Made by a program: the position numbers and the translations under genes. Positions 3,790 to 28,354 of a DNA stretch of 40,591 bases are shown here, piece by piece. Each line of letters starts with the position of its first letter. Within the stretch, counting starts at the first letter, position 1. The notes under the pieces were generated by a model. That model was given only the letters and a program-made list of their open reading frames with translations. It ran no database searches and was not told the origin of the DNA. Location: positions 1-40,591 of the IMG/VR virus record IMGVR_UViG_3300049003_000077; one strand, 5' to 3'. The DNA comes from a virus.

Positions 3790-4845
3790 TCAGGAGACCT
3801 TGACGGAGGCGGTGACGAGCCCCGTCGGGCGCACGACCTTGCCGCCGTACAGGTGCAGGCCCTTGAGGGCGTCGGCGAACCGCTTCTGCGGCCGGAACGC
3901 CTCGACCTTGCTGATCTGCTCGGCGTAGGAGGTGGCGATCGCCGAACCGGAGACGGCCACCTGGCCACCGCCGGACAGGGCGATGTCGGCCACCGTGGCC
4001 GACGCCGAGGAGTTGACCGTCGTGACGGCGGTGCTCCCGTCCGCGGACACGGAGGCGACCTTGTTGGCGGCGCCGACACCGGTGCCGGCGATCGTCAGCC
4101 CGACGTCGCCCTGGTTGAACGTCCCGGCCGCGGCCACGATGTTCTTCGAGCCGGTCGTGGTGGTCGCGGTCAGGCCCGAGCGGTTGGCCTGGGGGGCGTT
4201 GTTCGACAGCAGGATGTTGAAGCCCGCGGCCCGGCCGACGAGGCCGTTGCGCAGTCCGCTGTCGTCGCCCGACTCGTTCACCTTGATGAACCGGCTGTCG
4301 AGGAGCAGCTGGCCGTGCGTGGCCGGGTCGATGACCGTGAACCGGCCGTTGGTGGGCACGTTGGCCTGGTCCAGCTTCACCTTCGACGGCACGAGCAGCC
4401 GGTCGTAGACGTTGCTGGCGGTCGTCGCGTCGACCACGCCGAGGGCGTTGCCCGCGGCTGCGACCATCTTGGCGGCCACGTACTGGTCGGCCTTGTCCCG
4501 CAGACCGAACGCGGCCTGGTTCGCGGCGTCGGTCATCAGCGCGCCGCCGGAGCGGGACTGGCGCATGTCGATGTCGTCGATCTCGAAGGCGAAGGCCTTG
4601 GCCTGGTCGATCAGGAGCAGCTGCTCGCTGTCGTTCAGGGTCTCGACGTTGAGGTCGGTGTCCTTGGCGTAGTCGACGATCGTCGGGGCGCCCACCGAGA
4701 CGATGTGCACGGTGTCGCCGAAGGCGGAGATCTCGCCCTCGTAGTCGCGGTTGACGCACGGCGTGCCCGCGTAGACGAGGTTCTTGTAGAGGACGGAGAG
4801 GACCTGGGCGGCCCAGACCTCGGGGATGAAGTTGGCGATCGACAT
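3790..4845 (-). CDS. Major capsid protein
   Basis: The 351-residue coat protein begins MSIANFIPEVWAAQVL and carries NRDYEGEISAFGDTVHI, DQAKAFAFEIDDIDMRQ, KADQYVA, LRNGLVGRAAGFNILLSNN and a final FADALKGLHLYGGKVVRP. These match the P22-coat-like capsid family widespread in actinophages, with the HK97 fold. An extra Gly/Ser/Thr/Ala-rich beta segment of about 70 residues (about 230-300) interrupts the region between LLSNN and EQISKVEAFRP, where shorter homologues run straight on. It is preceded by the scaffold gene, and the ATG at 4845 has a good ribosome site. Confidence 0.92.
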   Translation of the reverse strand: MSIANFIPEVWAAQVLSVLYKNLVYAGTPCVNRDYEGEISAFGDTVHIVSVGAPTIVDYAKDTDLNVETLNDSEQLLLIDQAKAFAFEIDDIDMRQSRSGGALMTDAANQAAFGLRDKADQYVAAKMVAAAGNALGVVDATTASNVYDRLLVPSKVKLDQANVPTNGRFTVIDPATHGQLLLDSRFIKVNESGDDSGLRNGLVGRAAGFNILLSNNAPQANRSGLTATTTTGSKNIVAAAGTFNQGDVGLTIAGTGVGAANKVASVSADGSTAVTTVNSSASATVADIALSGGGQVAVSGSAIATSYAEQISKVEAFRPQKRFADALKGLHLYGGKVVRPTGLVTASVKVS

Positions 4846-8726: not shown

Positions 8727-9780
8727 GGTCGGCCCTCCGGCTGTCCCACAGGCCGTCGGGCAGCCAGGAGCCGCCGCCGGCGACGATCCGGTTGCCGAAG
8801 AACCGCTCGGCCTGCGCAGGGTCGGTCGCTGCGAGCTCGCTGGCCTCGCCCTCGATCGAGTCGAGGTTCACGTGCTCGGAGCCCTCGTAGACGTAGGCGT
8901 GGATCCTGCGTCGCTCGGCCTTGACCGAGTACTTCAGCTTCGGCGGTGGCTGGCGGAAGTACCGGAAGACGTCGGTGGACGCCGTCTCGTAGGTGGTCTG
9001 AGCGACCGACTCCTCAGACGGGTCCCAGGCGTTGGTGGTCTCCAGCGTGCGCCCGCCCATGCCGGCAGCGCCGCGGCGCTGGGTCTCGGCGACCCGGCGC
9101 ATCTTGTTGGCCTTCGTGTAGAGCCCGGTTTCGTCCTGGAACGCCGCGCTGATCGGGTTGCCGAGCCGGCTGTTGGCCGAGGCGGTGACCTTGTCGATGC
9201 GGTCCAGGTCGGGGTCGTCACTGCCGCCGAGCACGCGGATGAAGCCCTCGCGGACGCTGAGCAGCTCGGCCAGGGGGCCCATGCGGATCATCGCCGTCAG
9301 GGGCCGGTAGATGTTGTCGACCTGGTCCTCGGACGTCGCCGTGAGCTGGATCAGCGGGGACGGCTGCCGGATGCCCGTGGGCTCGCCGACCTCGTACTCG
9401 TAGGCCCAGCCGCAGGGGCAGCCGAAGTCCTCGCAGTCGTAGACATCCCCGGCGCGCGCCCAGCCGCCGAAGACCGTCGGGCCGACCGCTTCGGCCGTCA
9501 CGAGGCCAGCGGTCCACGGTCCCTTGCCGGTCTTCTGTGGCGCGACCACCTGCGAGCGCCGGTAGACGAACGCCTGGTTGAGCAGCGGGCGCTCGGGGAT
9601 CCACTTCGCGTCCTCGCGGATCCGGTAGTGGTTCGCGGTGCACCAGAACTGCCAGTCGTACTGGTGGAACGGCTTGCCGCGGTCGAACCCGTCGGGGACC
9701 CGGCAGTGCTGCTCGAGCCAGCCGTCGATCAGGTCGCCGAGCGTGGGGAAGTCGACCTTGCCGACGTGATCGCTGATCAC
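8710..9780 (-). CDS. Terminase large subunit, ATPase domain (separate ORF)
   Basis: This 356-residue protein holds the packaging motor ATPase: a Walker A-like PQKTGKGP at 81-88, a zinc-type insertion CEDFGCPCGW at 116-125, SEDQ at 150-153 and the Walker B segment AAFQDE at 212-217. The ATPase part ends in FFGNRIVAGGGSWLPDGLWDS, where relatives continue directly into the nuclease. Here the frame stops after RVAAA, and the nuclease resumes as a second ORF. It is coupled to the small-subunit gene by a 4-base overlap. Confidence 0.9.
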   Translation of the reverse strand: MISDHVGKVDFPTLGDLIDGWLEQHCRVPDGFDRGKPFHQYDWQFWCTANHYRIREDAKWIPERPLLNQAFVYRRSQVVAPQKTGKGPWTAGLVTAEAVGPTVFGGWARAGDVYDCEDFGCPCGWAYEYEVGEPTGIRQPSPLIQLTATSEDQVDNIYRPLTAMIRMGPLAELLSVREGFIRVLGGSDDPDLDRIDKVTASANSRLGNPISAAFQDETGLYTKANKMRRVAETQRRGAAGMGGRTLETTNAWDPSEESVAQTTYETASTDVFRYFRQPPPKLKYSVKAERRRIHAYVYEGSEHVNLDSIEGEASELAATDPAQAERFFGNRIVAGGGSWLPDGLWDSRRADRVAAA

Positions 9781-10271
9781 CGCAGCCGCCGCGGCCGCCG
9801 CACCTGGGGTTCGGCCGCGGCCTCAGCCTCGGGCGTCTCCGTGGCCGGGCGAGAGGCCCGGCGCGCGCCGATCTCGTCGACCGCGACCTGCCAGCCCATC
9901 TCGGCCAGGCCGGCCGTCGTCATGCCGATCTGGTCGGCGAAGCGGTGCAGCTGCCCGTACAGCGCGGCGCCGGCCTCAGTGCTCTCGCAGCGGACCTTGA
10001 CCCGAACCCACATCGCGACGCTCGGGATCCGCCAGCGCTCGGATGGCAGTGACCACGCGCAGGCCTGCGGGGTGCGCCACGCGGCCGCCCAGACCTGGGT
10101 CTCCCGGATCGAGATCTCGTCGTCGATCGCCGCAGGCAGCGGGAAGTCGGGGATCTCGCCGTCGTAGCCCTCCGCCGGCAGAGCCTTCAGCGAGTAGCCG
10201 CGGGCGTCGGAGCGTCCCGACCTCGGATCCGCCGCCGGACCGGACCGGTTCCGCGCTCCCCCACGCCCCAT
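9777..10271 (-). CDS. Terminase small subunit
   Basis: The protein has 164 residues beginning MGRGGARNRSGPAADPRSGRSDARG and continuing LPAEGYDGEIPDFPLP and TQVWAAAWRTPQACAW. This N-terminus, with a basic tail and the LPAEGY.G..P.FPLP motif, is characteristic of P27-like terminase small subunits in actinophages. It recognises the packaging site and loads DNA on the large subunit, which follows directly. Confidence 0.85.
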   Translation of the reverse strand: MGRGGARNRSGPAADPRSGRSDARGYSLKALPAEGYDGEIPDFPLPAAIDDEISIRETQVWAAAWRTPQACAWSLPSERWRIPSVAMWVRVKVRCESTEAGAALYGQLHRFADQIGMTTAGLAEMGWQVAVDEIGARRASRPATETPEAEAAAEPQVRRPRRLR

Positions 10272-10442
10272 CGCCGGTCACCGCCTCCCCCGCGGCCCCA
10301 GCCGGCGGTCACAGAAGGTGACTGATGATCTTGACCCGCGAATGTTTGAACCCTCCGCGGGTGGGAGAGCCCTCCCCGGCGGTCCAGGCCGCGACGGCGC
10401 GAGGGGGGCACCCCCCATGCCTTGGTCACGGTGGGTGACCGG
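10272..10442. other. Packaging-site (cos/pac) candidate region between HNH and terS
   Basis: This 171-base gap between the HNH nuclease and the terminase small subunit holds no gene. It contains two perfect dyads: six G, CA, six C at 10403-10416, and GGTCAC/GTGACC arms at 10424-10429 and 10435-10440. In HK97-type phages the cos site and the HNH-assisted cleavage site lie next to these genes, so this is the best place for the packaging site. The exact cut cannot be read from sequence alone. Confidence 0.4.
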
Positions 10443-10793
10443 TCAGCGTTCGTTCCAGCCGCCGGGCTGGTTGCTCGAGGTCTCGCGGTCGTGGCAGCGC
10501 TTGCACAGGCCGCGGCCGAAGCGCGGGTCATCGGGGTTGCGGCCGCTCGTGATCAGCTCTCGCCGGGACAGCGGCCAGTGGTCGGCGACGGTGGACGCGG
10601 CGAGCTCGCACAGCACGCAGATCGGGTCGCGGTCGAGCACGTCAGTGCGGAAGTGCCGGTGGCCGGCGCTGTTGTAGCCGCGCTCGGTGGCGGTGCCACG
10701 GTCGCGGTCGGCCTGTCGCTGGCAGTCGGGGCAGCGTCCGCTGTCGGTGAGGCGTGGGCAGCCTGGCCTGGTGCAGACACGTCGCGATGGCAC
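10443..10793 (-). CDS. HNH endonuclease (packaging-associated)
   Basis: This 116-residue protein starts at GTG 10793 behind AGGAGAG. Two Cys pairs (C7/C12 and C21/C24) form an N-terminal zinc knuckle. The HNH core follows: C59-x2-C62, D71-H72-WP, and the final LCKRCHDRET with C97, C100 and H101. HNH proteins encoded beside terminase stimulate site-specific cos cleavage by the terminase complex. A longer frame upstream exists but is antisense-like. Confidence 0.88.
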   Translation of the reverse strand: MPSRRVCTRPGCPRLTDSGRCPDCQRQADRDRGTATERGYNSAGHRHFRTDVLDRDPICVLCELAASTVADHWPLSRRELITSGRNPDDPRFGRGLCKRCHDRETSSNQPGGWNER

Positions 10794-10809
10794 GGCTCTC
10801 CTGCCAGAG

Positions 10810-10941
10810 TCAGCTGTCCAGATCTGGACAGCGCGGGCGCACGAGGCCGCAGCCTGGGCACCACTCGTGCTCGGTACCGAGGGGCTGCCAGTCGTGGGCG
10901 TGCGGCTGGAGGGAGCGCCGGTAGGCCTCGAGGTCAGGCAC
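10810..10941 (-). CDS. Small zinc-ribbon-like protein (43 aa)
   Basis: This short ORF starts with GTG at 10941, seven bases after the stop of the 65-residue gene, and ends at 10810. It encodes a Tyr/Trp/His-containing peptide with HAHDW, EHEWCPGCGLVRPRC, a single Cys-rich knuckle. The Cys spacing and conserved-looking Trp residues argue for a real gene. The ribosome site is weak, so expression probably depends on coupling to the upstream gene. Function is unknown. Confidence 0.5.
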   Translation of the reverse strand: MPDLEAYRRSLQPHAHDWQPLGTEHEWCPGCGLVRPRCPDLDS

Positions 10942-18324: not shown

Positions 18325-19158
18325 TCAGAACGGCGGCGCGGTCCGGCCGGCTGTCCGTCTGCGGCTACTGCGAGGGTCCGGTGGGCCGGACCCTGCGGCG
18401 ATCAGCGTCGGAACGGCCGTGCGGGCCAGGCCGACGACGAGGTCGGGGTGGCAGTCGGGGCATTTCGCGACGGCGTCGGTGAGGCGGCCCCGTCGACGGT
18501 CCTCGGGGCTGCAGTCGGGATCGCCGCACCACTGCACGGCGGCTCGGCGCATGTCGAGCTGCGCGGCGGCGACGGCTTCGGCGGCAGCGGCCGCTCGGAG
18601 CGCGGAGCGGGGGCTGGTGCCGCAGGGGCGGCAGCCGGATGTCTTCCCGTGGGCGCATCGGCGCCCCCCAGCTCGGCTGGGGGGTTGGGGGGTAGTCGGA
18701 CGTTCAGGACGTTCGGGTGACACCCAGGTGTCACCCCTGGAACGACAGAGCTGTGTCACCCCGGGTGACAACCTGTCGCCCCCCTCGCCGACCTCCGGAG
18801 GGGGTGACAACTTGTCACCCCCTCCGGGGTTGCCCACAGCTTTTTCCACCGCGGCCGGGCGCTTCCTGGAGGCCTTGTCCGGCTTCTTCGCCGCGTCGTC
18901 CATGTGCACCCGGTAGCGGTGGGTTCCGTTCTGTCCGGCCCCTCGCACGACCGTGAGGCAGCCGATCTCCTCGAGGTGCTGGATGCGCCGCTGAACCGTG
19001 CGTTCGGAGCAGGTGGCCTTGTCGGCGAGTGTCTTGACCGAGGGCCACGCGTGGTCACCGTCGTCGCCGGCGTGATCGGCGATCGCCAGGAGGAGCAGCC
19101 GGTCGTTGCCGGTCGTCTTGGAGTACTTCCACACCCAGGCCGAGCACTCGACGCTCAC
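18325..19158 (-). CDS. Winged-helix replication initiator-like protein
   Basis: This 277-residue protein has an N-terminal winged-helix domain (residues 1-85): WVWKYSKTTGNDRLLLLAIADHA, WPSVKTLADKATCSERTVQRRI and YRVHM. This is the usual head of phage replication initiators. The following Pro/Gly/Ser-rich linker holds GDKLSPP, GDRLSPG and GDTWVSPE, encoded by repeated dyad DNA, and a zinc-like C-terminal part (CAHGKTSGCRPC, CPDCHPD) follows. Lambda O-like proteins also carry their origin iterons within the gene. Start GTG 19158. Confidence 0.75.
   Translation of the reverse strand: MSVECSAWVWKYSKTTGNDRLLLLAIADHAGDDGDHAWPSVKTLADKATCSERTVQRRIQHLEEIGCLTVVRGAGQNGTHRYRVHMDDAAKKPDKASRKRPAAVEKAVGNPGGGDKLSPPPEVGEGGDRLSPGVTQLCRSRGDTWVSPERPERPTTPQPPSRAGGRRCAHGKTSGCRPCGTSPRSALRAAAAAEAVAAAQLDMRRAAVQWCGDPDCSPEDRRRGRLTDAVAKCPDCHPDLVVGLARTAVPTLIAAGSGPPDPRSSRRRTAGRTAPPF
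18715..18850. other. Candidate replication origin (dyad iterons plus DnaA-box-like sites)
   Basis: The interval in the initiator gene holds four dyads built from GGTGACA/TGTCACC: 18715-18736 (perfect, 10-bp arms), 18754-18770 (8-bp arms), 18763-18781 (one mismatch), and 18795-18827 (perfect 33-bp palindrome, 16-bp arms). Next to them lie ttgcccaca (18830-18838), 7 of 9 with the DnaA box, and ttttccacc (18842-18850), 8 of 9. Iterons in the linker of the initiator gene next to DnaA boxes form the standard theta-origin layout. Confidence 0.65.
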
Positions 19159-19742
19159 GAGGCAACGTCCTCGTCGACGTCGACGTCGACCTGCTCGAGC
19201 TCACCGCCGGCGGCTGCGTCGTGCAGCCGGCGACGGTCGGCGAACGTTGTGCCGCCCCAGACTCCCTCGATGGCCATGCCGTCGATGCGGGTGGTCATCG
19301 CGTAGCGACGGCATGGGTTGAGGAACTCGCAGCCGGCGCAGAGCTTCTTGGCCTCGGTCCCGCGGGCGCCGTTCTTCGGGAAGAACAGCTCCGGGTCGAC
19401 CTGCGCACAGATCTGCGAGCCGTCGAAGGACGGCGCGGGCGGGCCGGGAGCCAGCTGGACGAACGGAACACCGGCCGGCTCCGGCGGCGGAGAGTCCTCC
19501 CCCAGTCCGGCGGGCTGCAGGGGCTCACCGATCGGCCGCACGCACAACACCAGCGCGCGCCTGCCGGCCGCGTGGCCGGCGTCCCAGGCCGCGAGCTCGA
19601 CGTCGGTCAGATACCGCAGGTAGTACCGCGGCCTGCCGCCGAGGCGCTGCAGCCAGCCGTCGCGGTAGGCCTCCTCACGCAGCGGTGCGGGATCGCGGGC
19701 CCACTCCCCCGCCGGGAGTGGATGGGTGATGGACAGCGTCAT
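19155..19742 (-). CDS. WhiB-like protein with long N-terminal extension
   Basis: The 195-residue protein has an N-terminal half (about 1-105) with YRDGWLQRLGGRPRYYLRYLTDVELAAWDAGHAAGRR, then the WhiB core: C112, C135, C138, C144 and GVWGG at 160-164. The tail is acidic (EQVDVDVDEDVAS). WhiB-family proteins carry a 4Fe-4S cluster and modulate sigma factor-dependent transcription. The N-terminal domain is not part of ordinary WhiB proteins (usually 80-130 residues); it could add another function or a protein interaction. Confidence 0.85.
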   Translation of the reverse strand: MTLSITHPLPAGEWARDPAPLREEAYRDGWLQRLGGRPRYYLRYLTDVELAAWDAGHAAGRRALVLCVRPIGEPLQPAGLGEDSPPPEPAGVPFVQLAPGPPAPSFDGSQICAQVDPELFFPKNGARGTEAKKLCAGCEFLNPCRRYAMTTRIDGMAIEGVWGGTTFADRRRLHDAAAGGELEQVDVDVDEDVAS

Positions 19743-21579: not shown

Positions 21580-21680
21580 CTGGGTCCCCGCCGCGATCGC
21601 AGGATGAGGTGCGCGGCGATGACGACGAGGCGGAGTTCACGCTCGACGCCGGCGACAAGGCTGTCGTGTCGGCGGCTCAC
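21576..21680 (-). CDS. 34-codon coupled small protein
   Basis: GTG 21680 overlaps the end of the ParB-domain gene (GTGA), and the stop overlaps the next start. The peptide is SRRHDSLVAGVERELRLVVIAAHLILRSRRG with basic ends and a hydrophobic centre. Double coupling argues for real translation. Confidence 0.5.
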   Translation of the reverse strand: MSRRHDSLVAGVERELRLVVIAAHLILRSRRGPR

Positions 21681-23137
21681 TGAGCACCGTCCGCGGGGGC
21701 GAGCATCGTCTGCTCGATGTCGGAGAGCTCGTAGCCCTGGTCGACCAGAAACCTCAGCCACCGAACGACCTCGTCGGCGGTGCCGCGCCAGGAGTCCTTC
21801 GCGATGCGGGTCTCGATCGCACCGGCGATGTGCGCGAGCAGCTGCAGCGGGAGACGCGCGTCCGGAACCCGCTCCCCCGTGGTCAGGGTCGTGCGCTTCT
21901 CCGTGGGGGTCGCCGACCAGGGCAAGACCGGGGTCTGCAGGCCCATCGCGGCGTCGGCGTCGTGGTCGCCGACGGGGGAGGCGCTGCCGGTCCAGCAGTG
22001 CAGGGCGTGCGGGTTGGTGGCGATCTCCTCGACCGCGAACCGCAGGGCCTCCTTCGGCGCCTTGGCCCGCTGCAGGTACTCCCGGATCCAGGCCCGCCGG
22101 GTGGCGTTGGCGGCCGCCAGCGCCTTGTTGTTGTCCAGCACCTGGCGGCGTTCGGCGCGCTGCCGCTCGAGCTCCTCGTCCGACATCGACGCGCCCGGAC
22201 CCCCGCGGGGATCTCTCCCCCACCGCTGGGTGTGACCATTCGCGGCCGGAGCCGTGCACACCTCGTAGACGAGGACGTCCACCCGGGTTCCGTAGTCCTG
22301 GCCCCGGATCGCGACCGCCGAGCCGCGGCAGGACCTGTGTCCATCCGGATCGATGACCTGCCCGGCGTGGAGCAGGTCGGAGATGCGCGCAGCGACCTGG
22401 TGCGCGGGGCTCGACTCCTCGAGCACCGTGCGGCCGGCCGCCACCATCTCGGCGCGCTTCGAAGCGATCGCCTCGGCGAGCGCGCGGTCCTGCTCCGCGC
22501 GGGTGACCGCGTGGGCGAACCGGCCCGGCCCCTCCCCCGCCGCCTGCACCAGCTGGTCGACCGCCGCGGTGTTGTCCTCGAATCGGGCGACGACCGCGGC
22601 CTGGTCCAGGGTGAGCCCGGCGCCGGCGACCGCGGCCGCGGCGGACGGCGTCATGCGGGCGACGCCGGCGGCCTTCATGACCCGCTTGCGGTCCAGGCCG
22701 GTGCGCGCGACGACGGTGTTCACGTCGACGTCGAGGTCGAGCATCGTCTGGATGCCGCGCGCCTCCTCCACCGCGGTGAGCTCGGCGCGCTGCAGGTTCT
22801 CGGCGAGCATCGCGCCCACGTGCTCGGCCTGGACGTGGTCGGTGGCGGCGTCGACCGACAGGTCTAGGCGGATGACGCACGGCACCAGCTCGACGCCGGC
22901 GGCGATCGCGGCCGCGGCGCGCCGATGCCCGGCCACGATCTGGTAGCTGCGGTCGTCGAGCGCGATGACCGTGAGCGGTTCGATGACGCCCTGGGCGGCG
23001 ATGGACGCGGTCAGCCCCTCGAGGTCGCCGAGGTGCTGCCGCACGTTGCGCGGGTGCGGGGCGAGCTTCCGCGGGTCGAGCAGGGCCGTGTCGAGCCGGA
23101 TGCTGTCCCGCCACTCCGATACGGGCAGGGCGGTCAT
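21677..23137 (-). CDS. ParB-domain protein (phage ParB-like CTPase/regulator)
   Basis: The 486 residues begin with the ParB N-terminal domain (about 15-125): LAPHPRNVR, VIEPLTVIAL, the GHRR box at 70-73 and ENLQR at 113-117. A helix-turn-helix region (VNTVVARTGLDRKRVMKAAGVA) follows. The large C-terminal half is specific and contains WGRDPRGG and a helical end. No ParA gene and no clear parS repeat are near, so the role may be transcription or DNA organisation rather than partition. Start ATG 23137. Confidence 0.85.
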   Translation of the reverse strand: MTALPVSEWRDSIRLDTALLDPRKLAPHPRNVRQHLGDLEGLTASIAAQGVIEPLTVIALDDRSYQIVAGHRRAAAAIAAGVELVPCVIRLDLSVDAATDHVQAEHVGAMLAENLQRAELTAVEEARGIQTMLDLDVDVNTVVARTGLDRKRVMKAAGVARMTPSAAAAVAGAGLTLDQAAVVARFEDNTAAVDQLVQAAGEGPGRFAHAVTRAEQDRALAEAIASKRAEMVAAGRTVLEESSPAHQVAARISDLLHAGQVIDPDGHRSCRGSAVAIRGQDYGTRVDVLVYEVCTAPAANGHTQRWGRDPRGGPGASMSDEELERQRAERRQVLDNNKALAAANATRRAWIREYLQRAKAPKEALRFAVEEIATNPHALHCWTGSASPVGDHDADAAMGLQTPVLPWSATPTEKRTTLTTGERVPDARLPLQLLAHIAGAIETRIAKDSWRGTADEVVRWLRFLVDQGYELSDIEQTMLAPADGAQ

Positions 23138-24277: not shown

Positions 24278-24526
24278 TCACGCCGCACCTGCCGCTGGAA
24301 CGTCGAGGAGGTCCTCGACGGTGACACCCAGAAACCGGGCGACCTGGACGACCTCGTCGACTGAGAACGGCACCAGGCCGCGTGTCCTCTTGCCGATGCG
24401 GTGTTCGTCGACGCCCAGCGCCGCCGCCAGCTCGCGGCGGGTCTTGTTCTGCCGTGCCAGCGCGGCCCTCACGTTGGCTGCCACCTGCGCACTGGTCTCG
24501 GCTGGAGGGCTGCTGTTCCGGGTCAC
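24278..24526 (-). CDS. cro: Cro-like HTH regulator
   Basis: This 82-residue protein has an XRE-type HTH at 14-75 (RELAAALGVDEHRIGKRTRGLVPFSVDEVVQVARFLGV). It is a paralogue of the divergent repressor: both share R-ELA-A-G, GKR..G.VP, the VAR.LGV pattern and a final LL. It starts with GTG at 24526, right after operator-like sequence and without a ribosome site, so the mRNA may be leaderless. Its place opposite the repressor is that of Cro in the BPs-type switch. It should repress the repressor promoter in lytic growth. Confidence 0.72.
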   Translation of the reverse strand: MTRNSSPPAETSAQVAANVRAALARQNKTRRELAAALGVDEHRIGKRTRGLVPFSVDEVVQVARFLGVTVEDLLDVPAAGAA

Positions 24527-24682
24527 GTCTAGCGACGCTAGCTCTAGGAGCAGGCGACCGTCTAGCCGAGCCAGGGTGTCGGCGTGTCACCTCGCTGCGT
24601 GGCTCGGCGTGTTCCCCAGAACACGCCGAAGTCACCCGACAAGGCGATGCTTCGCCCCGCCGTGTGGGCTAGTTTCTGCTCC
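24527..24682. promoter_or_regulatory. Divergent switch region with operators (24530-24542, 24604-24629)
   Basis: The 156 bases between the repressor and Cro contain the perfect dyad ctagcg-a-cgctag at 24530-24542 with a second gtctagc site at 24560-24566. They also contain a strong dyad, arms tcggcgtgttc (24604-24614) and its complement (24619-24629), whose half-site tcggcgtgtc recurs at 24579. A leftward promoter candidate is TAGACG, 18 bases, TAGCGT, ending 8 bases before the Cro GTG. The rightward -10 is at 24670. Confidence 0.6.
24670..24675 (+). promoter_or_regulatory. Repressor promoter -10 element (leaderless start)
   Basis: The hexamer TAGTTT ends 7 bases before the ATG at 24683, so transcription should start at or near the A of the start codon. 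No ribosome site precedes that ATG. The -35 is weak, as expected where an activator or the repressor itself controls the promoter. Confidence 0.5.
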
Positions 24683-25174
24683 ATGGGACTTCTGCAGAGC
24701 CGTAAGGCCATGCCGGCTCGCGATTATCGGTCGTACGCAGCTCAAGCAGCCGACGAGCTCCGGTCGCTGTGTCGGGCGCATGGGATCACCAACCGGGAAC
24801 TAGCGGAGGCCTGCGGCCGGAACGAGTTCTGGGTCGGGAAGCGGATCAACGGCCAGGTGCCCATGGATCTCGACGACCTCGAGCTCGTGGCCCGGGCGCT
24901 GGGTGTCGAGCCGGGGGAGCTGCTGCCGAAGAACTGGGAGGCGCCACCGTCGCCGGATCCCGGCACCGACGGTGACGCTGGGTGGGCCCCGAGGGGATCG
25001 AACCCTCAACCCGCGGATTACAAGTTCGCTAGTTCTCCCCGATTCGGCACGGACAGTGACGACCTCGCTGACGTTCGGCCACTCCTCCCGCGCCGCCGCC
25101 TGACCATCGTCCGGCCGCCGCGCCCCCGCCGCCTGACCGTCGTCCCCGGCGAGCTCGAGTCGGCAGCCGCGTGA
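24683..25174 (+). CDS. rep: Immunity repressor with attP inside its gene
   Basis: This 163-residue repressor has an XRE-type HTH at about 24-83 (TNRELAEACGRNEFWVGKRINGQVP, VARALGVEPGELL) and no dimerisation/RecA-cleavage domain. Residues 101-114 (WAPRGSNPQPADYK) are the translation of the antisense of a tRNA 3' half, an att core. Residues 115-163 are unique to the viral form, are Arg/Pro-rich, and end GELESAAA, like an ssrA-type degradation tag. The start is the leaderless ATG at 24683; GTG/ATG codons upstream have no matching signals. BPs-type repressors (136 aa viral, 103 aa prophage) have the same architecture. Confidence 0.85.
   Translation: MGLLQSRKAMPARDYRSYAAQAADELRSLCRAHGITNRELAEACGRNEFWVGKRINGQVPMDLDDLELVARALGVEPGELLPKNWEAPPSPDPGTDGDAGWAPRGSNPQPADYKFASSPRFGTDSDDLADVRPLLPRRRLTIVRPPRPRRLTVVPGELESAAA
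24981..25024. other. attP: attP core: antisense of tRNA-Thr(UGU) 3' half
   Basis: On the minus strand these bases read as the 3' half of a tRNA: anticodon loop CTTGTAA (25024-25018, anticodon TGT), 3' anticodon strand TCCGC, variable GGGTT, T-arm GAGGG-TTCGATC-CCCTC (25007-24991), acceptor GGGGCCC (24990-24984), discriminator A and CC. The 5' half is missing (the next five bases differ from the required anticodon strand by one), so it is not a functional tRNA gene. A tRNA 3' half in a phage with a tyrosine integrase is a typical attachment core. Confidence 0.85.
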
Positions 25175-25473
25175 TGGCCGACCTCGCCCTGGCCCCCGCC
25201 GCGATCACCCGTCGGCTGCGGGCCGCCGGCATCCACGTCACCGGGTCCACGCACCCGACGCGGCCCGGGCAGTGCGTCCTCGATCGCGAAGTCGTTCGCG
25301 TCTACCCGGTGTGCACCTTCCGCGACGATGAGGAGGAGCGCGCCTCTCGCGCTGTCGTCGAACACCTGACCGTCGCCGGCTACCTGGCCGAGCGAACCGG
25401 CTGGGGCGAGGTTGACGTCCGCCTGCCCGTCTCCGATGTCGCCGCGCGCGCACTGCAGGCCGGCTCCCGATGA
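25174..25473 (+). CDS. Hypothetical protein after repressor (99 aa)
   Basis: The ATG at 25174 shares its A with the repressor stop (TGATG); a GTG three bases earlier is an alternative. The protein contains ITRRLRAAGIHVTGST and CVLDREVVRVYPVCTFRDDEEERASRAVVEHLTVAGYLAE. It is a mixed alpha/beta small protein with no domain I recognise. In the virus it is in one operon with the repressor. After integration it is on the other side of attP and loses the repressor promoter. Confidence 0.6.
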   Translation: MADLALAPAAITRRLRAAGIHVTGSTHPTRPGQCVLDREVVRVYPVCTFRDDEEERASRAVVEHLTVAGYLAERTGWGEVDVRLPVSDVAARALQAGSR

Positions 25474-26252
25474 GCGCCGACTTCGTCCGCGTCGAGGACG
25501 TCGTCGCCGCGGGCCCGCGCGAGCAGCTGCTCGCCGAGGCGATCCGGGTGCTGACCGCGGCCGCGCGGCTGACCCGCCCGGTGCTCGAGCGGGACCGGGC
25601 GGCCAGCGAGGCCGAGGGCACCCCGGTCTGGAAGGACAGCGGCCGCACCGAACCGGAGGACTGGGCCGAGTTCGTCACCCAGGCGCTCGCCGGCGCCGCG
25701 GCCAACGCCGGCGGCGTGGAGAAGGTGCTGGCCGGCCGGCCAGGCTCGTGGGAGGCCGACTTCACCCGCCAGCTGCTCACCGGCACCGTCGGGCACGACA
25801 GCGAATACCTCTGGGAGCACCGCACCGAACCGGTCACCGTCACCCTGTACGTCGACGAGCTGGTCGACGACATCAACGCGCGAAAGCCCTACGACGACGC
25901 CGAGGCGGCGATCGACGCCCGCTACGACGAGGTCCCGGACGGGACGGAGGCCTACGAGGAGCACGTCACCATGCTGCTGGCGCTCGGCGGGCGCCTCGAC
26001 GAGCAGCGAACCGCTGACTGGACGGCCTGGGGCGCAGCGCTGGCCGAGGCGGTCAAGACCACCGCCGCCCGTCGGATGCCCGGCCTGCGAGTCCCGGTCG
26101 ACGTCGTCGTCGACGTCACGACCTGGCGGCCGGACCGCCAGGAGCCGTACTGGCCGGACCTCGAGTGGGAGCTGATCGGTGAGGCGCTGAGCGCGACCCC
26201 GGTTCCGTGGGCCGATGCCTCGCCGCTCGAGCGGCTGGCCGACGCCCGATGA
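25470..26252 (+). CDS. Hypothetical acidic protein (260 aa)
   Basis: This 260-residue acidic protein begins MSADFVRVEDVVAAGPREQLLAEAIRVLTAAARLTRPVLERDRAA and has a middle segment WEADFTRQLLTGTVGHDSEYLWEHRTEPVTVTLYVDELVDDI. The C-terminus (PVDVVVDVTTWRPDRQEPYWPDLEW) looks beta-rich. No catalytic motif is evident. It overlaps the neighbouring genes (ATGA), in the lysogeny operon between repressor and methyltransferase. Confidence 0.62.
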   Translation: MSADFVRVEDVVAAGPREQLLAEAIRVLTAAARLTRPVLERDRAASEAEGTPVWKDSGRTEPEDWAEFVTQALAGAAANAGGVEKVLAGRPGSWEADFTRQLLTGTVGHDSEYLWEHRTEPVTVTLYVDELVDDINARKPYDDAEAAIDARYDEVPDGTEAYEEHVTMLLALGGRLDEQRTADWTAWGAALAEAVKTTAARRMPGLRVPVDVVVDVTTWRPDRQEPYWPDLEWELIGEALSATPVPWADASPLERLADAR

Positions 26253-27019
26253 CGGCTCGATCATGTGCGTGGTGTCGAGGGCCGATCCCCGCCCGGGCGC
26301 GACGCGACGCGTTGACCTGCTCGCAGCCGTGCCGGCAGGCCCGGCATCGAGTCTCCAGATACGCGTCGCGGGGTGCGGCCGCCGAGCGCGACGCGTCGCG
26401 CAGGCCTCGAGCAGAGCCGTCGAGCGGATCCCCGCGACGGCTCGCCTACGCCGACCCGCCATACCCGGGGAAGTCACGGCTCTACTACGGCGATCACCCC
26501 GACTTCGCCGGCGAGGTCGACCACGCTGAACTGCTGTCGCGCGTGGCCACATACGACGGCTGGGCGATGTCGACCTCGGCCGCGGCGCTCCCCCGGGTTC
26601 TGGCGCTAGCCGTCGCGCAGGACCTCCCGGTGCGCGTCGCAGCGTGGATGCGTGGCGCTCGGCCGCACGCGACGGCTCGCTATCCGGTGAGCGCTTGGGA
26701 GCCGGTCGTCTACGTGCCCGTTCCGTCGCGCGTCGCCGGTGAGCCGCGACGGGTCGATGGCCTGGTGCACGGGGTGTCCGCACTGCGCACCCTGCCGAGC
26801 AGGGTGATCGGGGCCAAGCCGGCGGCGTTCTGTCGCTGGATGTTCGACCTGGTGGGCGCGACGGCTGGCGACAGCCTCGACGACCTGTTTCCCGGCTCAG
26901 GCATCGTCGCGACGACATGGGAGCTGTTTCAGGCATCCGTCGCGGCCGACGTCGGAATCCGTCGCCCGGCACCGCGGTGCGGCGCGACGGCTGGCGACAG
27001 CGCTCAGGTACCGGCATGA
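26249..27019 (+). CDS. DNA methyltransferase with N-terminal zinc finger
   Basis: This 256-residue protein starts at ATG 26249 (ATGA overlap). An N-terminal CAWC...CSQPC cluster (C6/C9, C24/C28) is zinc-finger-like. The catalytic motif DPPY is at 69-72 and the SAM-binding motif FPGSG at 214-218, in the order DPPY then FxGxG (beta-type amino methyltransferase). It likely methylates adenine N6 or cytosine N4. No restriction enzyme is adjacent, so it looks like an orphan modifier protecting the phage or prophage. A 21-bp direct repeat encodes the same motif twice (GATAGDS). Confidence 0.75.
   Translation: MTARSCAWCRGPIPARARRDALTCSQPCRQARHRVSRYASRGAAAERDASRRPRAEPSSGSPRRLAYADPPYPGKSRLYYGDHPDFAGEVDHAELLSRVATYDGWAMSTSAAALPRVLALAVAQDLPVRVAAWMRGARPHATARYPVSAWEPVVYVPVPSRVAGEPRRVDGLVHGVSALRTLPSRVIGAKPAAFCRWMFDLVGATAGDSLDDLFPGSGIVATTWELFQASVAADVGIRRPAPRCGATAGDSAQVPA
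26855..27001. repeat. 21-bp direct repeats in the methyltransferase gene
   Basis: The 21-base sequence beginning ggcgcgacggctggcg occurs at 26855-26875 and again at 26981-27001, 126 bases (42 codons) apart. Both copies encode GATAGDS in frame. The copies bracket the SAM-binding motif, so recombination between them would delete the C-terminal segment. Confidence 0.8.
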
Positions 27020-27330
27020 CGGCCCCGGATGACTGGCAGACGGTGGTCGACTCGCTCCAGGAAGCGCTGGCGGAAGAGCGCGAAGCCGCCTACTACGCGC
27101 AGACCGAGTGGAAAGCCGCTGACGCACGACTGGAGGCGCTGCGGACGGAGATTGAGCGGCACATCGCGGCGGCACCCGTCATGCGGTTCGACAACGACTA
27201 CCCGGTCAAGGCCGTCCCCGTCGCCGAGCTGTTCGCCATGCTCGCCCTCGCCGCCGACACCACTGTGGCCGAGCTGACCCAGCGGTCCGGGTCCGGCGCC
27301 ACACAAACCGGCGCTGGCGGCACACCGTGA
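27016..27330 (+). CDS. Coiled-coil hypothetical protein (104 aa)
   Basis: The 104-residue product has a long charged helix (WQTVVDSLQEALAEEREAAYYAQTEWKAADARLEALRTEIERHI), then a small folded segment (VKAVPVAELFAMLALAADTTVAELTQ). ATG 27016 overlaps the methyltransferase stop. It could be a regulator or partner for the neighbouring methyltransferase or integrase; no family known to me. Confidence 0.6.
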   Translation: MTAPDDWQTVVDSLQEALAEEREAAYYAQTEWKAADARLEALRTEIERHIAAAPVMRFDNDYPVKAVPVAELFAMLALAADTTVAELTQRSGSGATQTGAGGTP

Positions 27331-27445: not shown

Positions 27446-28354
27446 ATGGGGGACCCCGGTGAGCTGACGGCCGAGCTGCTCGAGGAGTGGGCGCTGTGGA
27501 TGCGTGCCGCCGGCATGAGCGAGCGCACGGTGCACAACCGCGTGAGCTTGATCGGGTTCTTCGGCCGGTTCGCCGGCGTCGACGCGTGTCTGGCCGACTG
27601 GAAGGCGCTGGCCGCCTTCCTCGGCCGCGAGGTGGCTCCCGGCCAGCGGATCGCCCCCGGCACCCGCTCGGTGAACTACGCCGACCTCGACGCCTGGTTC
27701 TCCTGGCTGCTGGCCATGGACTACCGGACGGATAACCCGGTCGACCGGCTGCACAAGCCGAAGGCGGTGAAGAGGTACCCGCGGCCGGTCCTGACCGAGC
27801 AGCTCGAGCGCGTGCTGGCCCGGTGCAACCGCCGCCGGACGGAGGCGATGCTGTATCTCGGCGCGTACCAGGGCCTGCGGGTGCACGAGATCGCGAAGTT
27901 CCGCGGCGAGCACATCGAGGGCCAGTTCCTCTACGTCGTCGGCAAGGGCAGCAAGCCGGCCCGGCTGCCGCTGCATCCCGACGTCGCCGCGATCGCCCTG
28001 GACTTCCCGCGGTACGGGTACTGGTTCCCCTCCTACACGCTGCCCGGCCAGCCGATTGCCGCCAAGAGCGTGTGCACGGTGATCAGCAAGCTGATGAAGC
28101 GCGCGGAGGTGAGCGCCACCGCGCACCAGCTGCGTCACTGGTACGGCACCGAGGTCCTGCGCGCCGCCGGCGGCAACATGCGGATCGCCCAGGAGCTGCT
28201 CCGCCACGACTCCCCCGCCACCACGGCGCTGTACACGTTCGTCGACGACGCCGAGGCCCGGGCGGCGATCATGGGCCTCCCCCGCGTCGGCGGCCGCCAG
28301 GCGCCAATCGCCAGCGTCGTCGACGTCGTCAGCCGGCTGCGCATCGTCGCCTGA
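27446..28354 (+). CDS. int: Tyrosine integrase
   Basis: This 302-residue tyrosine recombinase carries R145 (GLRVHE), K168/K170 (VGKGSK), H227-x2-R230 (HQLRH), H254 (LLRHDS) and Y263 (ALYTF), the full catalytic set. An N-terminal SAM-like core-binding domain (ELTAELLEEWALWMRAAGMSERTV) is present. I start at ATG 27446; the preceding 111 bases in frame (27335 on) look non-coding. The last residues are RLRIVA. The gene ends the rightward lysogeny operon, with the terminator 13 bases beyond its stop. It should recombine attP with a host tRNA-Thr attB. Confidence 0.93.
   Translation: MGDPGELTAELLEEWALWMRAAGMSERTVHNRVSLIGFFGRFAGVDACLADWKALAAFLGREVAPGQRIAPGTRSVNYADLDAWFSWLLAMDYRTDNPVDRLHKPKAVKRYPRPVLTEQLERVLARCNRRRTEAMLYLGAYQGLRVHEIAKFRGEHIEGQFLYVVGKGSKPARLPLHPDVAAIALDFPRYGYWFPSYTLPGQPIAAKSVCTVISKLMKRAEVSATAHQLRHWYGTEVLRAAGGNMRIAQELLRHDSPATTALYTFVDDAEARAAIMGLPRVGGRQAPIASVVDVVSRLRIVA

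What the first reader, a model, noticed from the sequence alone, without database searches (positions are those of the whole stretch)
24683..25174. attP core lies inside the immunity repressor gene: a candidate integration-dependent immunity switch
Bases 24981-25024 are the antisense of the 3' half of a tRNA-Thr(UGU), in frame in the repressor. Residues 101-114 (WAPRGSNPQPADYK) are the well-known translation of an antisense tRNA. With a tyrosine integrase in the same operon, this is an attP core. In the mycobacteriophages BPs, Brujita and Giles the same layout makes immunity depend on integration: recombination replaces the C-terminus of the repressor, removing a degradation tag, so only the prophage form is stable. 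Here the viral form would have 163 residues ending in SAAA and the prophage form about 114 plus host-encoded residues. I infer the mechanism; what I see is the attP placement, the tag-like end and the integrase.
Basis: partly seen in the sequence, partly recalled or inferred. Interest (0 to 1): 0.97.

Follow-up and report, generated by a model that had tools for sequence, protein, structure and literature searches.

The report
Phage repressor switched by host anticodon
This phage keeps its chromosome-insertion site inside its own repressor gene, and sequenced relatives in Blastococcus bacteria show that insertion lets the anticodon of a host lysine tRNA gene supply the stop codon that cuts off a tag-like tail of the repressor; this is a new example of a known type of lysogeny switch.

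Summary
The attP core does lie in frame inside the repressor gene. Three Blastococcus genomes with related prophages (Int 65-84% identical) show integration at exactly this point, so the central idea, an integration-dependent immunity architecture, is well supported. Three corrections. (1) The target is tRNA-Lys(UUU), not tRNA-Thr(UGU). The phage copy differs from the host tRNA at one base, window 25021 (C; host A), which makes it look like a UGU anticodon. (2) That base is the switch: attP reads GAT TAC AAG (open), attL reads GAT TAA, a stop complementary to tRNA bases A37, U36 and U35. (3) The prophage repressor is therefore exactly 112 residues, with no host-encoded residues. Truncation spares the helix-turn-helix domain and removes a tail ending in SAAA. 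In 17 of 22 frame-anchored relatives the viral tail ends [AVI]A, against 4% of background ORFs. The same anticodon stop occurs in Dietzia, Gordonia and Mycolicibacterium prophages with other repressors. Protein stability and immunity were not tested, and the window phage itself was not seen integrated. It is a new member of a known kind (BPs/Brujita-type integration-dependent immunity) with a neat, recurrent, sequence-verified detail.

The parts
24683..25174 (+). rep: immunity repressor, viral form 163 aa (prophage form 112 aa, codons 1-112 = 24683-25018)
   Evidence: HTH_31/HTH_26, PHROG repressor, start conserved in G010 and G012
24716..24922 (+). predicted folded DNA-binding domain, residues 12-80, kept in the truncated form
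   Evidence: single-sequence AlphaFold model: helices only at 12-80; rest without secondary structure and mostly low confidence
24983..25024 (+). attP core: antisense of the 3' half of tRNA-Lys(UUU), one mismatch at 25021
   Evidence: attL/attR of three Blastococcus lysogens; genus survey
25007..25020 (+). 14-bp interval CAACCCGCGGATTA within which strand exchange must occur
   Evidence: T-stem differs to the left and A/C differs to the right between attL and attR; ends of G010 phage contig overlap by exactly this
25019..25021 (+). switch codon 113: TAC (Tyr) in virus, TAA (stop) at attL; base 25021 corresponds to tRNA position 35, the middle anticodon base
   Evidence: frame
25019..25171 (+). 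viral-only tail, residues 113-163, ending ELESAAA (ssrA-like)
   Evidence: tails of relatives; host tmRNA tag ADSNQRDFALAA
25172..25176 (+). TGATG overlap: rep stop with the next gene's start, also in G010 and G011; coupling would be lost in the prophage
24278..24526 (-). small divergent HTH gene, Cro-like (82 aa)
   Evidence: HTH_3 E 1e-7, PHROG repressor family
24579..24629 (.). candidate operator: three TCGGCGTGT copies, two forming a perfect 11-bp inverted repeat; TTCGGCGTGTC also in the cro-rep gap of G010, G011 and G012
25171..27330 (+). four ORFs of unknown function between rep and int
   Evidence: ORF list; no Pfam match
27446..28354 (+). int: tyrosine integrase, 302 aa, ends RLRIVA
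   Evidence: PF00589; PHROG integrase; 84/78/65% identical to Blastococcus prophage integrases, 40.5% to Brujita Int

Best explanation
This is the lysogeny switch of a temperate actinobacterial phage whose host is most likely Blastococcus, with integration-dependent immunity. Shown by sequence in relatives: the integrase recombines the core inside rep with the 3' half of the host tRNA-Lys(UUU) gene; the tRNA is rebuilt at attL; there the repressor frame meets a TAA stop made of two bases of the shared core and one host base, the complement of U35, the middle anticodon base. In the virus that base is C, so the codon is Tyr and the frame runs on to residue 163 and an ssrA-like end. Inferred: the 163-aa viral repressor is degraded by host proteases (ClpXP-like) and gives little immunity; the 112-aa prophage repressor keeps the DNA-binding domain, is stable, binds the cro-rep intergenic operator and gives immunity. 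Integration also separates int from the rep promoter; excision restores the long form.
For: Repressor split at this core in three lysogens with PAD-stop at attL, open frame at attR, and an intact tRNA-Lys at attL. Empty site: both host flanks map on either side of tRNA-Lys in relatives. Collinear but circularly permuted at the core. Window core joined to the host half gives a 112-aa frame and a well-formed tRNA-Lys. Contig ends and 127-bp overlaps in G010 suggest attP together with attL/attR. Tail ends [AVI]A in 17 of 22 frame-anchored relatives against 4.2% background. Other elements in the same tRNA keep A. Same PAD-stop design in Dietzia, Gordonia and M. palauense. Closest described phage integrases are those of Brujita/Phayonce-type phages.
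Against: No prophage of the window phage itself was found; its attL is inferred from relatives with 65-84% identical Int. Tail ends vary: G012 ends AAAS, window Int ends IVA. No protein-stability or immunity data. Rep and int are four ORFs apart.
Confidence: 0.85

Rival explanations
1. attP lies in rep and integration truncates the repressor, but both forms are stable and active; the overlap only packs attP economically and immunity does not depend on integration.
For: Stability and activity were not measured; the tail sequence is poorly conserved and predicted disordered; G012 tail ends AAAS.
Against: Tails diverge yet keep tag-like ends in 17 of 22 cases; the open viral frame recurs although the host base would close it; published relatives behave as integration-dependent (PMC9262239, PMC9934374).
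Confidence: 0.1
2. The true attB is a tRNA-Thr(UGU) gene, and the repressor gains host-encoded residues at attL.
For: The attP bases match a UGU anticodon; some related phages do use tRNA-Thr genes.
Against: All three Blastococcus lysogens rebuild tRNA-Lys(ttt) at attL; no tRNA-Thr with this core in those genomes and none of the ACAAG form outside att sites in 16 related genomes.
Confidence: 0.03
3. tRNA-dependent lysogeny (Fionnbharth type): the host tRNA-Lys is destroyed and replaced by a phage tRNA.
For: The same tRNA-Lys(TTT) target is used in PMC10865867.
Against: tRNA-Lys is intact at attL; no tRNA gene in the window.
Confidence: 0.01
4. The window is a chimeric assembly or prophage remnant and the 163-aa frame never exists in one molecule.
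For: The record is a linear virus contig of unknown completeness.
Against: Head, portal and tape-measure genes are present. Synteny with integrated relatives is circularly permuted exactly at the core. Another viral contig with a different repressor shows the same attP-spanning frame (L185).
Confidence: 0.01

Closest known systems
Integration-dependent immunity of mycobacteriophage BPs (Broussard et al. 2013; read here through review PMC9262239)
   Same: attP inside rep; tRNA attB rebuilt at attL; one host base next to the core turns a codon's third base into a stop; viral Rep ends in an ssrA-like tag; Cro-like gene opposite rep.
   Different: BPs uses tRNA-Arg and Cys to TGA; here tRNA-Lys and Tyr to TAA, with the switching base in the anticodon; four ORFs lie between rep and int here.
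Brujita / cluster P-type phages
   Same: Closest described integrases (40-41% identity); Brujita gp34 also has an antisense-tRNA segment and ends HAA.
   Different: Different repressor and core; integrase directly follows rep; reported or predicted attB is tRNA-Thr for cluster P (PMC9635641).
M. abscessus prophages MabB/MabK (PMC8092301)
   Same: Truncation at attL; MabK stop made by the first bacterial base; rep and int may be 3-5 genes apart; -AA tails.
   Different: Different tRNA cores: MabK viral tail reads TFWSVV..EADAA; host genus Mycobacterium.
Gordonia phages Guacamole/TillyBobJoe
   Same: Related repressors with in-frame antisense tRNA (LAYK) and -AA ends; predicted integration-dependent immunity for Guacamole (PMC4929511).
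   Different: Core of another tRNA (predicted tRNA-Thr); rep and int separated by one gene.
tRNA-dependent lysogeny (Fionnbharth, PMC10865867)
   Same: attB at the tRNA-Lys(TTT) gene of an actinobacterium.
   Different: There the tRNA is destroyed and replaced by a phage tRNA; here the tRNA is rebuilt and the window encodes no tRNA.

Membership tests
Integration-dependent immunity (BPs type) | attP common core lies inside the repressor reading frame | tested here: met
[quoted passage not shown]
   tRNA-Lys(ttt) at attL in three related lysogens; empty sites; inferred for the window phage
Integration-dependent immunity (BPs type) | Prophage repressor is shorter because of a stop at or near attL | tested here: met
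   PAD-stop in three of three lysogens; 112 aa for the window core joined to a host half
Integration-dependent immunity (BPs type) | Viral repressor carries an ssrA-like C-terminal tag | tested here: met
   Window ends SAAA, G010 QTAA, G011 AVA, G012 AAAS; 17 of 22 against 4.2%. Sequence resemblance only
Integration-dependent immunity (BPs type) | Integrase also carries an ssrA-like tag | tested here: inconclusive
   Window and G010 end IVA, G011 ends IAA, G012 does not
Integration-dependent immunity (BPs type) | rep and int cotranscribed from the rep promoter | not testable with these tools
   Same strand, four ORFs between
Integration-dependent immunity (BPs type) | No arm-type integrase sites needed | tested here: inconclusive
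   Int is 302 aa; only the catalytic domain matches Pfam; arm sites were not searched for
Integration-dependent immunity (BPs type) | Divergent Cro-like gene with an operator between it and rep | tested here: met
   operator is a sequence candidate
Integration-dependent immunity (BPs type) | Viral form unstable and non-immune, prophage form stable and immune | not testable with these tools
   Needs experiment
tRNA-dependent lysogeny (Fionnbharth type) | Host tRNA not reconstructed and phage supplies the tRNA | tested here: not met
   tRNA-Lys intact at attL; no tRNA in window

The most novel reading that the evidence does not exclude
An anticodon-anchored lysogeny switch: the stop codon that converts the viral repressor to the prophage repressor is written by the anticodon of a host tRNA-Lys(UUU) gene, and the phage carries a decoy base there (C or T) to keep its own frame open. 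It recurs with different repressors in at least four actinobacterial genera. Because the host can hardly change U35 of this tRNA, the signal would be protected from host mutation.
Probability: 0.6. Interest if true: 0.6.

Novelty: new member of a known kind. Interest (0 to 1): 0.48.

Why it matters
It extends integration-dependent immunity to Blastococcus prophages (a library search found no such report) and fixes attP, attB, attL and attR to the base. It gives a clear rule: the frame in which a repressor crosses the antisense tRNA decides where the host-supplied stop falls, and in one frame the stop is the anticodon itself. It warns against naming attB from attP alone, since one base makes a lysine-tRNA site look like a threonine-tRNA site. 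The one-base difference makes the model testable: change only base 25021 and ask whether immunity becomes independent of integration.

Tried and rejected
The repressor alone as query against viral contigs found no relatives; the integrase did. tRNA-Thr(UGU) as attB was rejected by prophage junctions and pattern searches. tRNA-dependent lysogeny was rejected because the tRNA is restored. BPs and Halo records could not be fetched by accession, and the 2013 Mol Cell and Bacteriophage papers are not held, so the BPs comparison rests on review PMC9262239. An early count of tail endings (19 of 20) used a wrong frame for one case and included cases whose frame was chosen by the ending; it was replaced by the frame-anchored count of 17 of 22. 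Rhodococcoides G437 was left out because the pairing of its two integrases with the att sites is ambiguous. A C at the switch base is not specific to the PAD frame: two phages in another frame also have C.

Full report
The window is a whole virus record of 40,591 bases with major head protein, portal and tape-measure genes. The gene at 24683-25174 is a helix-turn-helix repressor, divergent from a small Cro-like gene at 24278-24526. Between them lie three copies of TCGGCGTGT, two of which form a perfect 11-bp inverted repeat; TTCGGCGTGTC is found in the corresponding gap of all three Blastococcus prophages, so this is a candidate operator. A single-sequence structure model shows helices only at residues 12-80; the rest, including the core-encoded segment and the tail, has no predicted secondary structure and mostly low confidence.

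ARAGORN finds no tRNA in the window, so this is a half tRNA, as expected of attP.

To find the real attB I used the integrase. Relatives at 84, 78 and 65% identity are in Blastococcus sp. CT_GayMR16 (G010), CCUG 61487 (G011) and TF02A-26 (G012). In all three the repressor is split: residues 1 to about 112 at one junction and the tail at the other. At the first junction (attL) the sequence continues CAACCCGCGGATTA-AAAGTCCGC and ARAGORN finds an intact tRNA-Lys(ttt); the repressor frame ends QPAD-stop. At the other junction (attR) it reads CAACCCGCGGATTA-CAAG and the frame continues PADYK to a tail. The T-stem left of the shared 14 bp differs between attL and attR, and the base to the right differs (A or C), so exchange occurs within CAACCCGCGGATTA, window 25007-25020.

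The A-or-C base is the switch. Codon 113 is TAC in the virus and TAA in the prophage. In tRNA numbering the stop is the complement of A37, U36 and U35, and the switching base is the complement of U35, the middle anticodon base. This is why attP looks like tRNA-Thr(UGU): it is a tRNA-Lys(UUU) copy with one change. Among 16 genomes searched around G010, 15 carry the A form, and the C form occurs only at prophage att sites in G010. Second copies of the core in five of those genomes, which look like other integrated elements, keep A, so the change goes with the phages whose repressor reads through in this frame.

Controls. Host flanks of the lysogens map on either side of the tRNA-Lys gene in relatives without this prophage. 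The window and the G010 prophage are collinear but circularly permuted exactly at the core. Joining the window core to the host half in silico gives a 112-aa frame and a well-formed tRNA-Lys. In G010 the phage is a separate 40,378-bp contig whose ends overlap each other by just the 14-bp core and overlap each chromosomal junction contig by 127 bp. I read this as an assembly-graph branch caused by reads of attP as well as attL and attR, that is, excised phage (or a tandem copy) in the culture; this is an inference.

How general is it? I read attL and attR of further prophages with related integrases. In those where both ends were found, a helix-turn-helix-like repressor frame runs into an antisense tRNA at attL: tRNA-Thr(cgt) in Arthrobacter, Agrococcus, Gleimia, Actinomyces, Kocuria and Pseudoclavibacter; tRNA-Thr(tgt) in Leucobacter; tRNA-Lys(ttt) in Tomitella, Mycolicibacter, Mycolicibacterium, Mycobacterium, Dietzia and Gordonia. 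All frames are used. In tRNA-Lys systems one frame gives IKSP-stop, another GLKVRSSTD-stop, and the third gives PAD-stop from the anticodon. The PAD frame occurs in the window, the three Blastococcus phages, Dietzia, Gordonia sp. OPL2 and M. palauense. In these seven the viral base is C six times and T once, always sense. In seven tRNA-Lys phages using the other frames it is A four times, C twice and G once. Part of this contrast is built in, because a PAD-frame virus with A or G would have no tail; the useful fact is that such open viral frames with tag-like ends exist repeatedly.

Tails. The viral tails are otherwise divergent, yet 17 of 22 with a frame fixed by the repressor at attL (or, for the window, at attP) end in [AVI]A, against 4.2% of 817 background ORFs; the cases are related, so the nominal p-value overstates the evidence. 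The Blastococcus tmRNA tag is ADSNQRDFALAA. G011 ends AVA, G012 ends AAAS, and the window Int ends IVA, so strict -LAA is not kept. That the viral form is degraded is an inference from this and from the published BPs system.

Literature. Integration-dependent immunity is established for mycobacteriophages (PMC9262239, PMC9934374), predicted in Gordonia phages (PMC4929511) and found in M. abscessus prophages, where some stops are made by the first bacterial base and rep and int may be 3 to 5 genes apart (PMC8092301). BPs turns a Cys codon into TGA with a host base (PMC9262239). So the principle is known. I found no report of Blastococcus members, nor of the anticodon of tRNA-Lys as the stop, in the library searched; papers outside that library may hold it.

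Noticed in passing
L057 (Gleimia europaea) 9734-10822 and L054 (Actinomyces urinae) 9743-10822: In these prophages the repressor frame at attL, continued across the core at attR, runs without a stop into the integrase (about 350 residues), so the viral genome would encode one repressor-integrase ORF; the linker is conserved at protein level between the two species. Internal start codons exist before int.
   Followed up: partly
L167, L170, L172, L175, L181: Second copies of the tRNA-Lys 3' end without a full tRNA in five Blastococcus-related genomes suggest other elements integrated at the same tRNA that keep the wild-type A base.
   Followed up: partly
L185 (IMGVR_UViG_3300025875_000069), reverse complement 4109-4534: A viral contig with a different repressor N-terminus carries the same core with the C base in frame and ends RTAVA; L186 and L187 carry similar tails ending RTAAA and RTAVA.
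   Followed up: partly
window 25172-25176: The rep stop overlaps the next gene's start (TGATG), also in G010 and G011, suggesting translational coupling that integration would break.
   Followed up: partly
window 21677-23137 (-) and 19155-19742 (-): A ParB-N-domain protein and a WhiB-family protein are encoded in the region leftward of the Cro-like gene.
   Followed up: no
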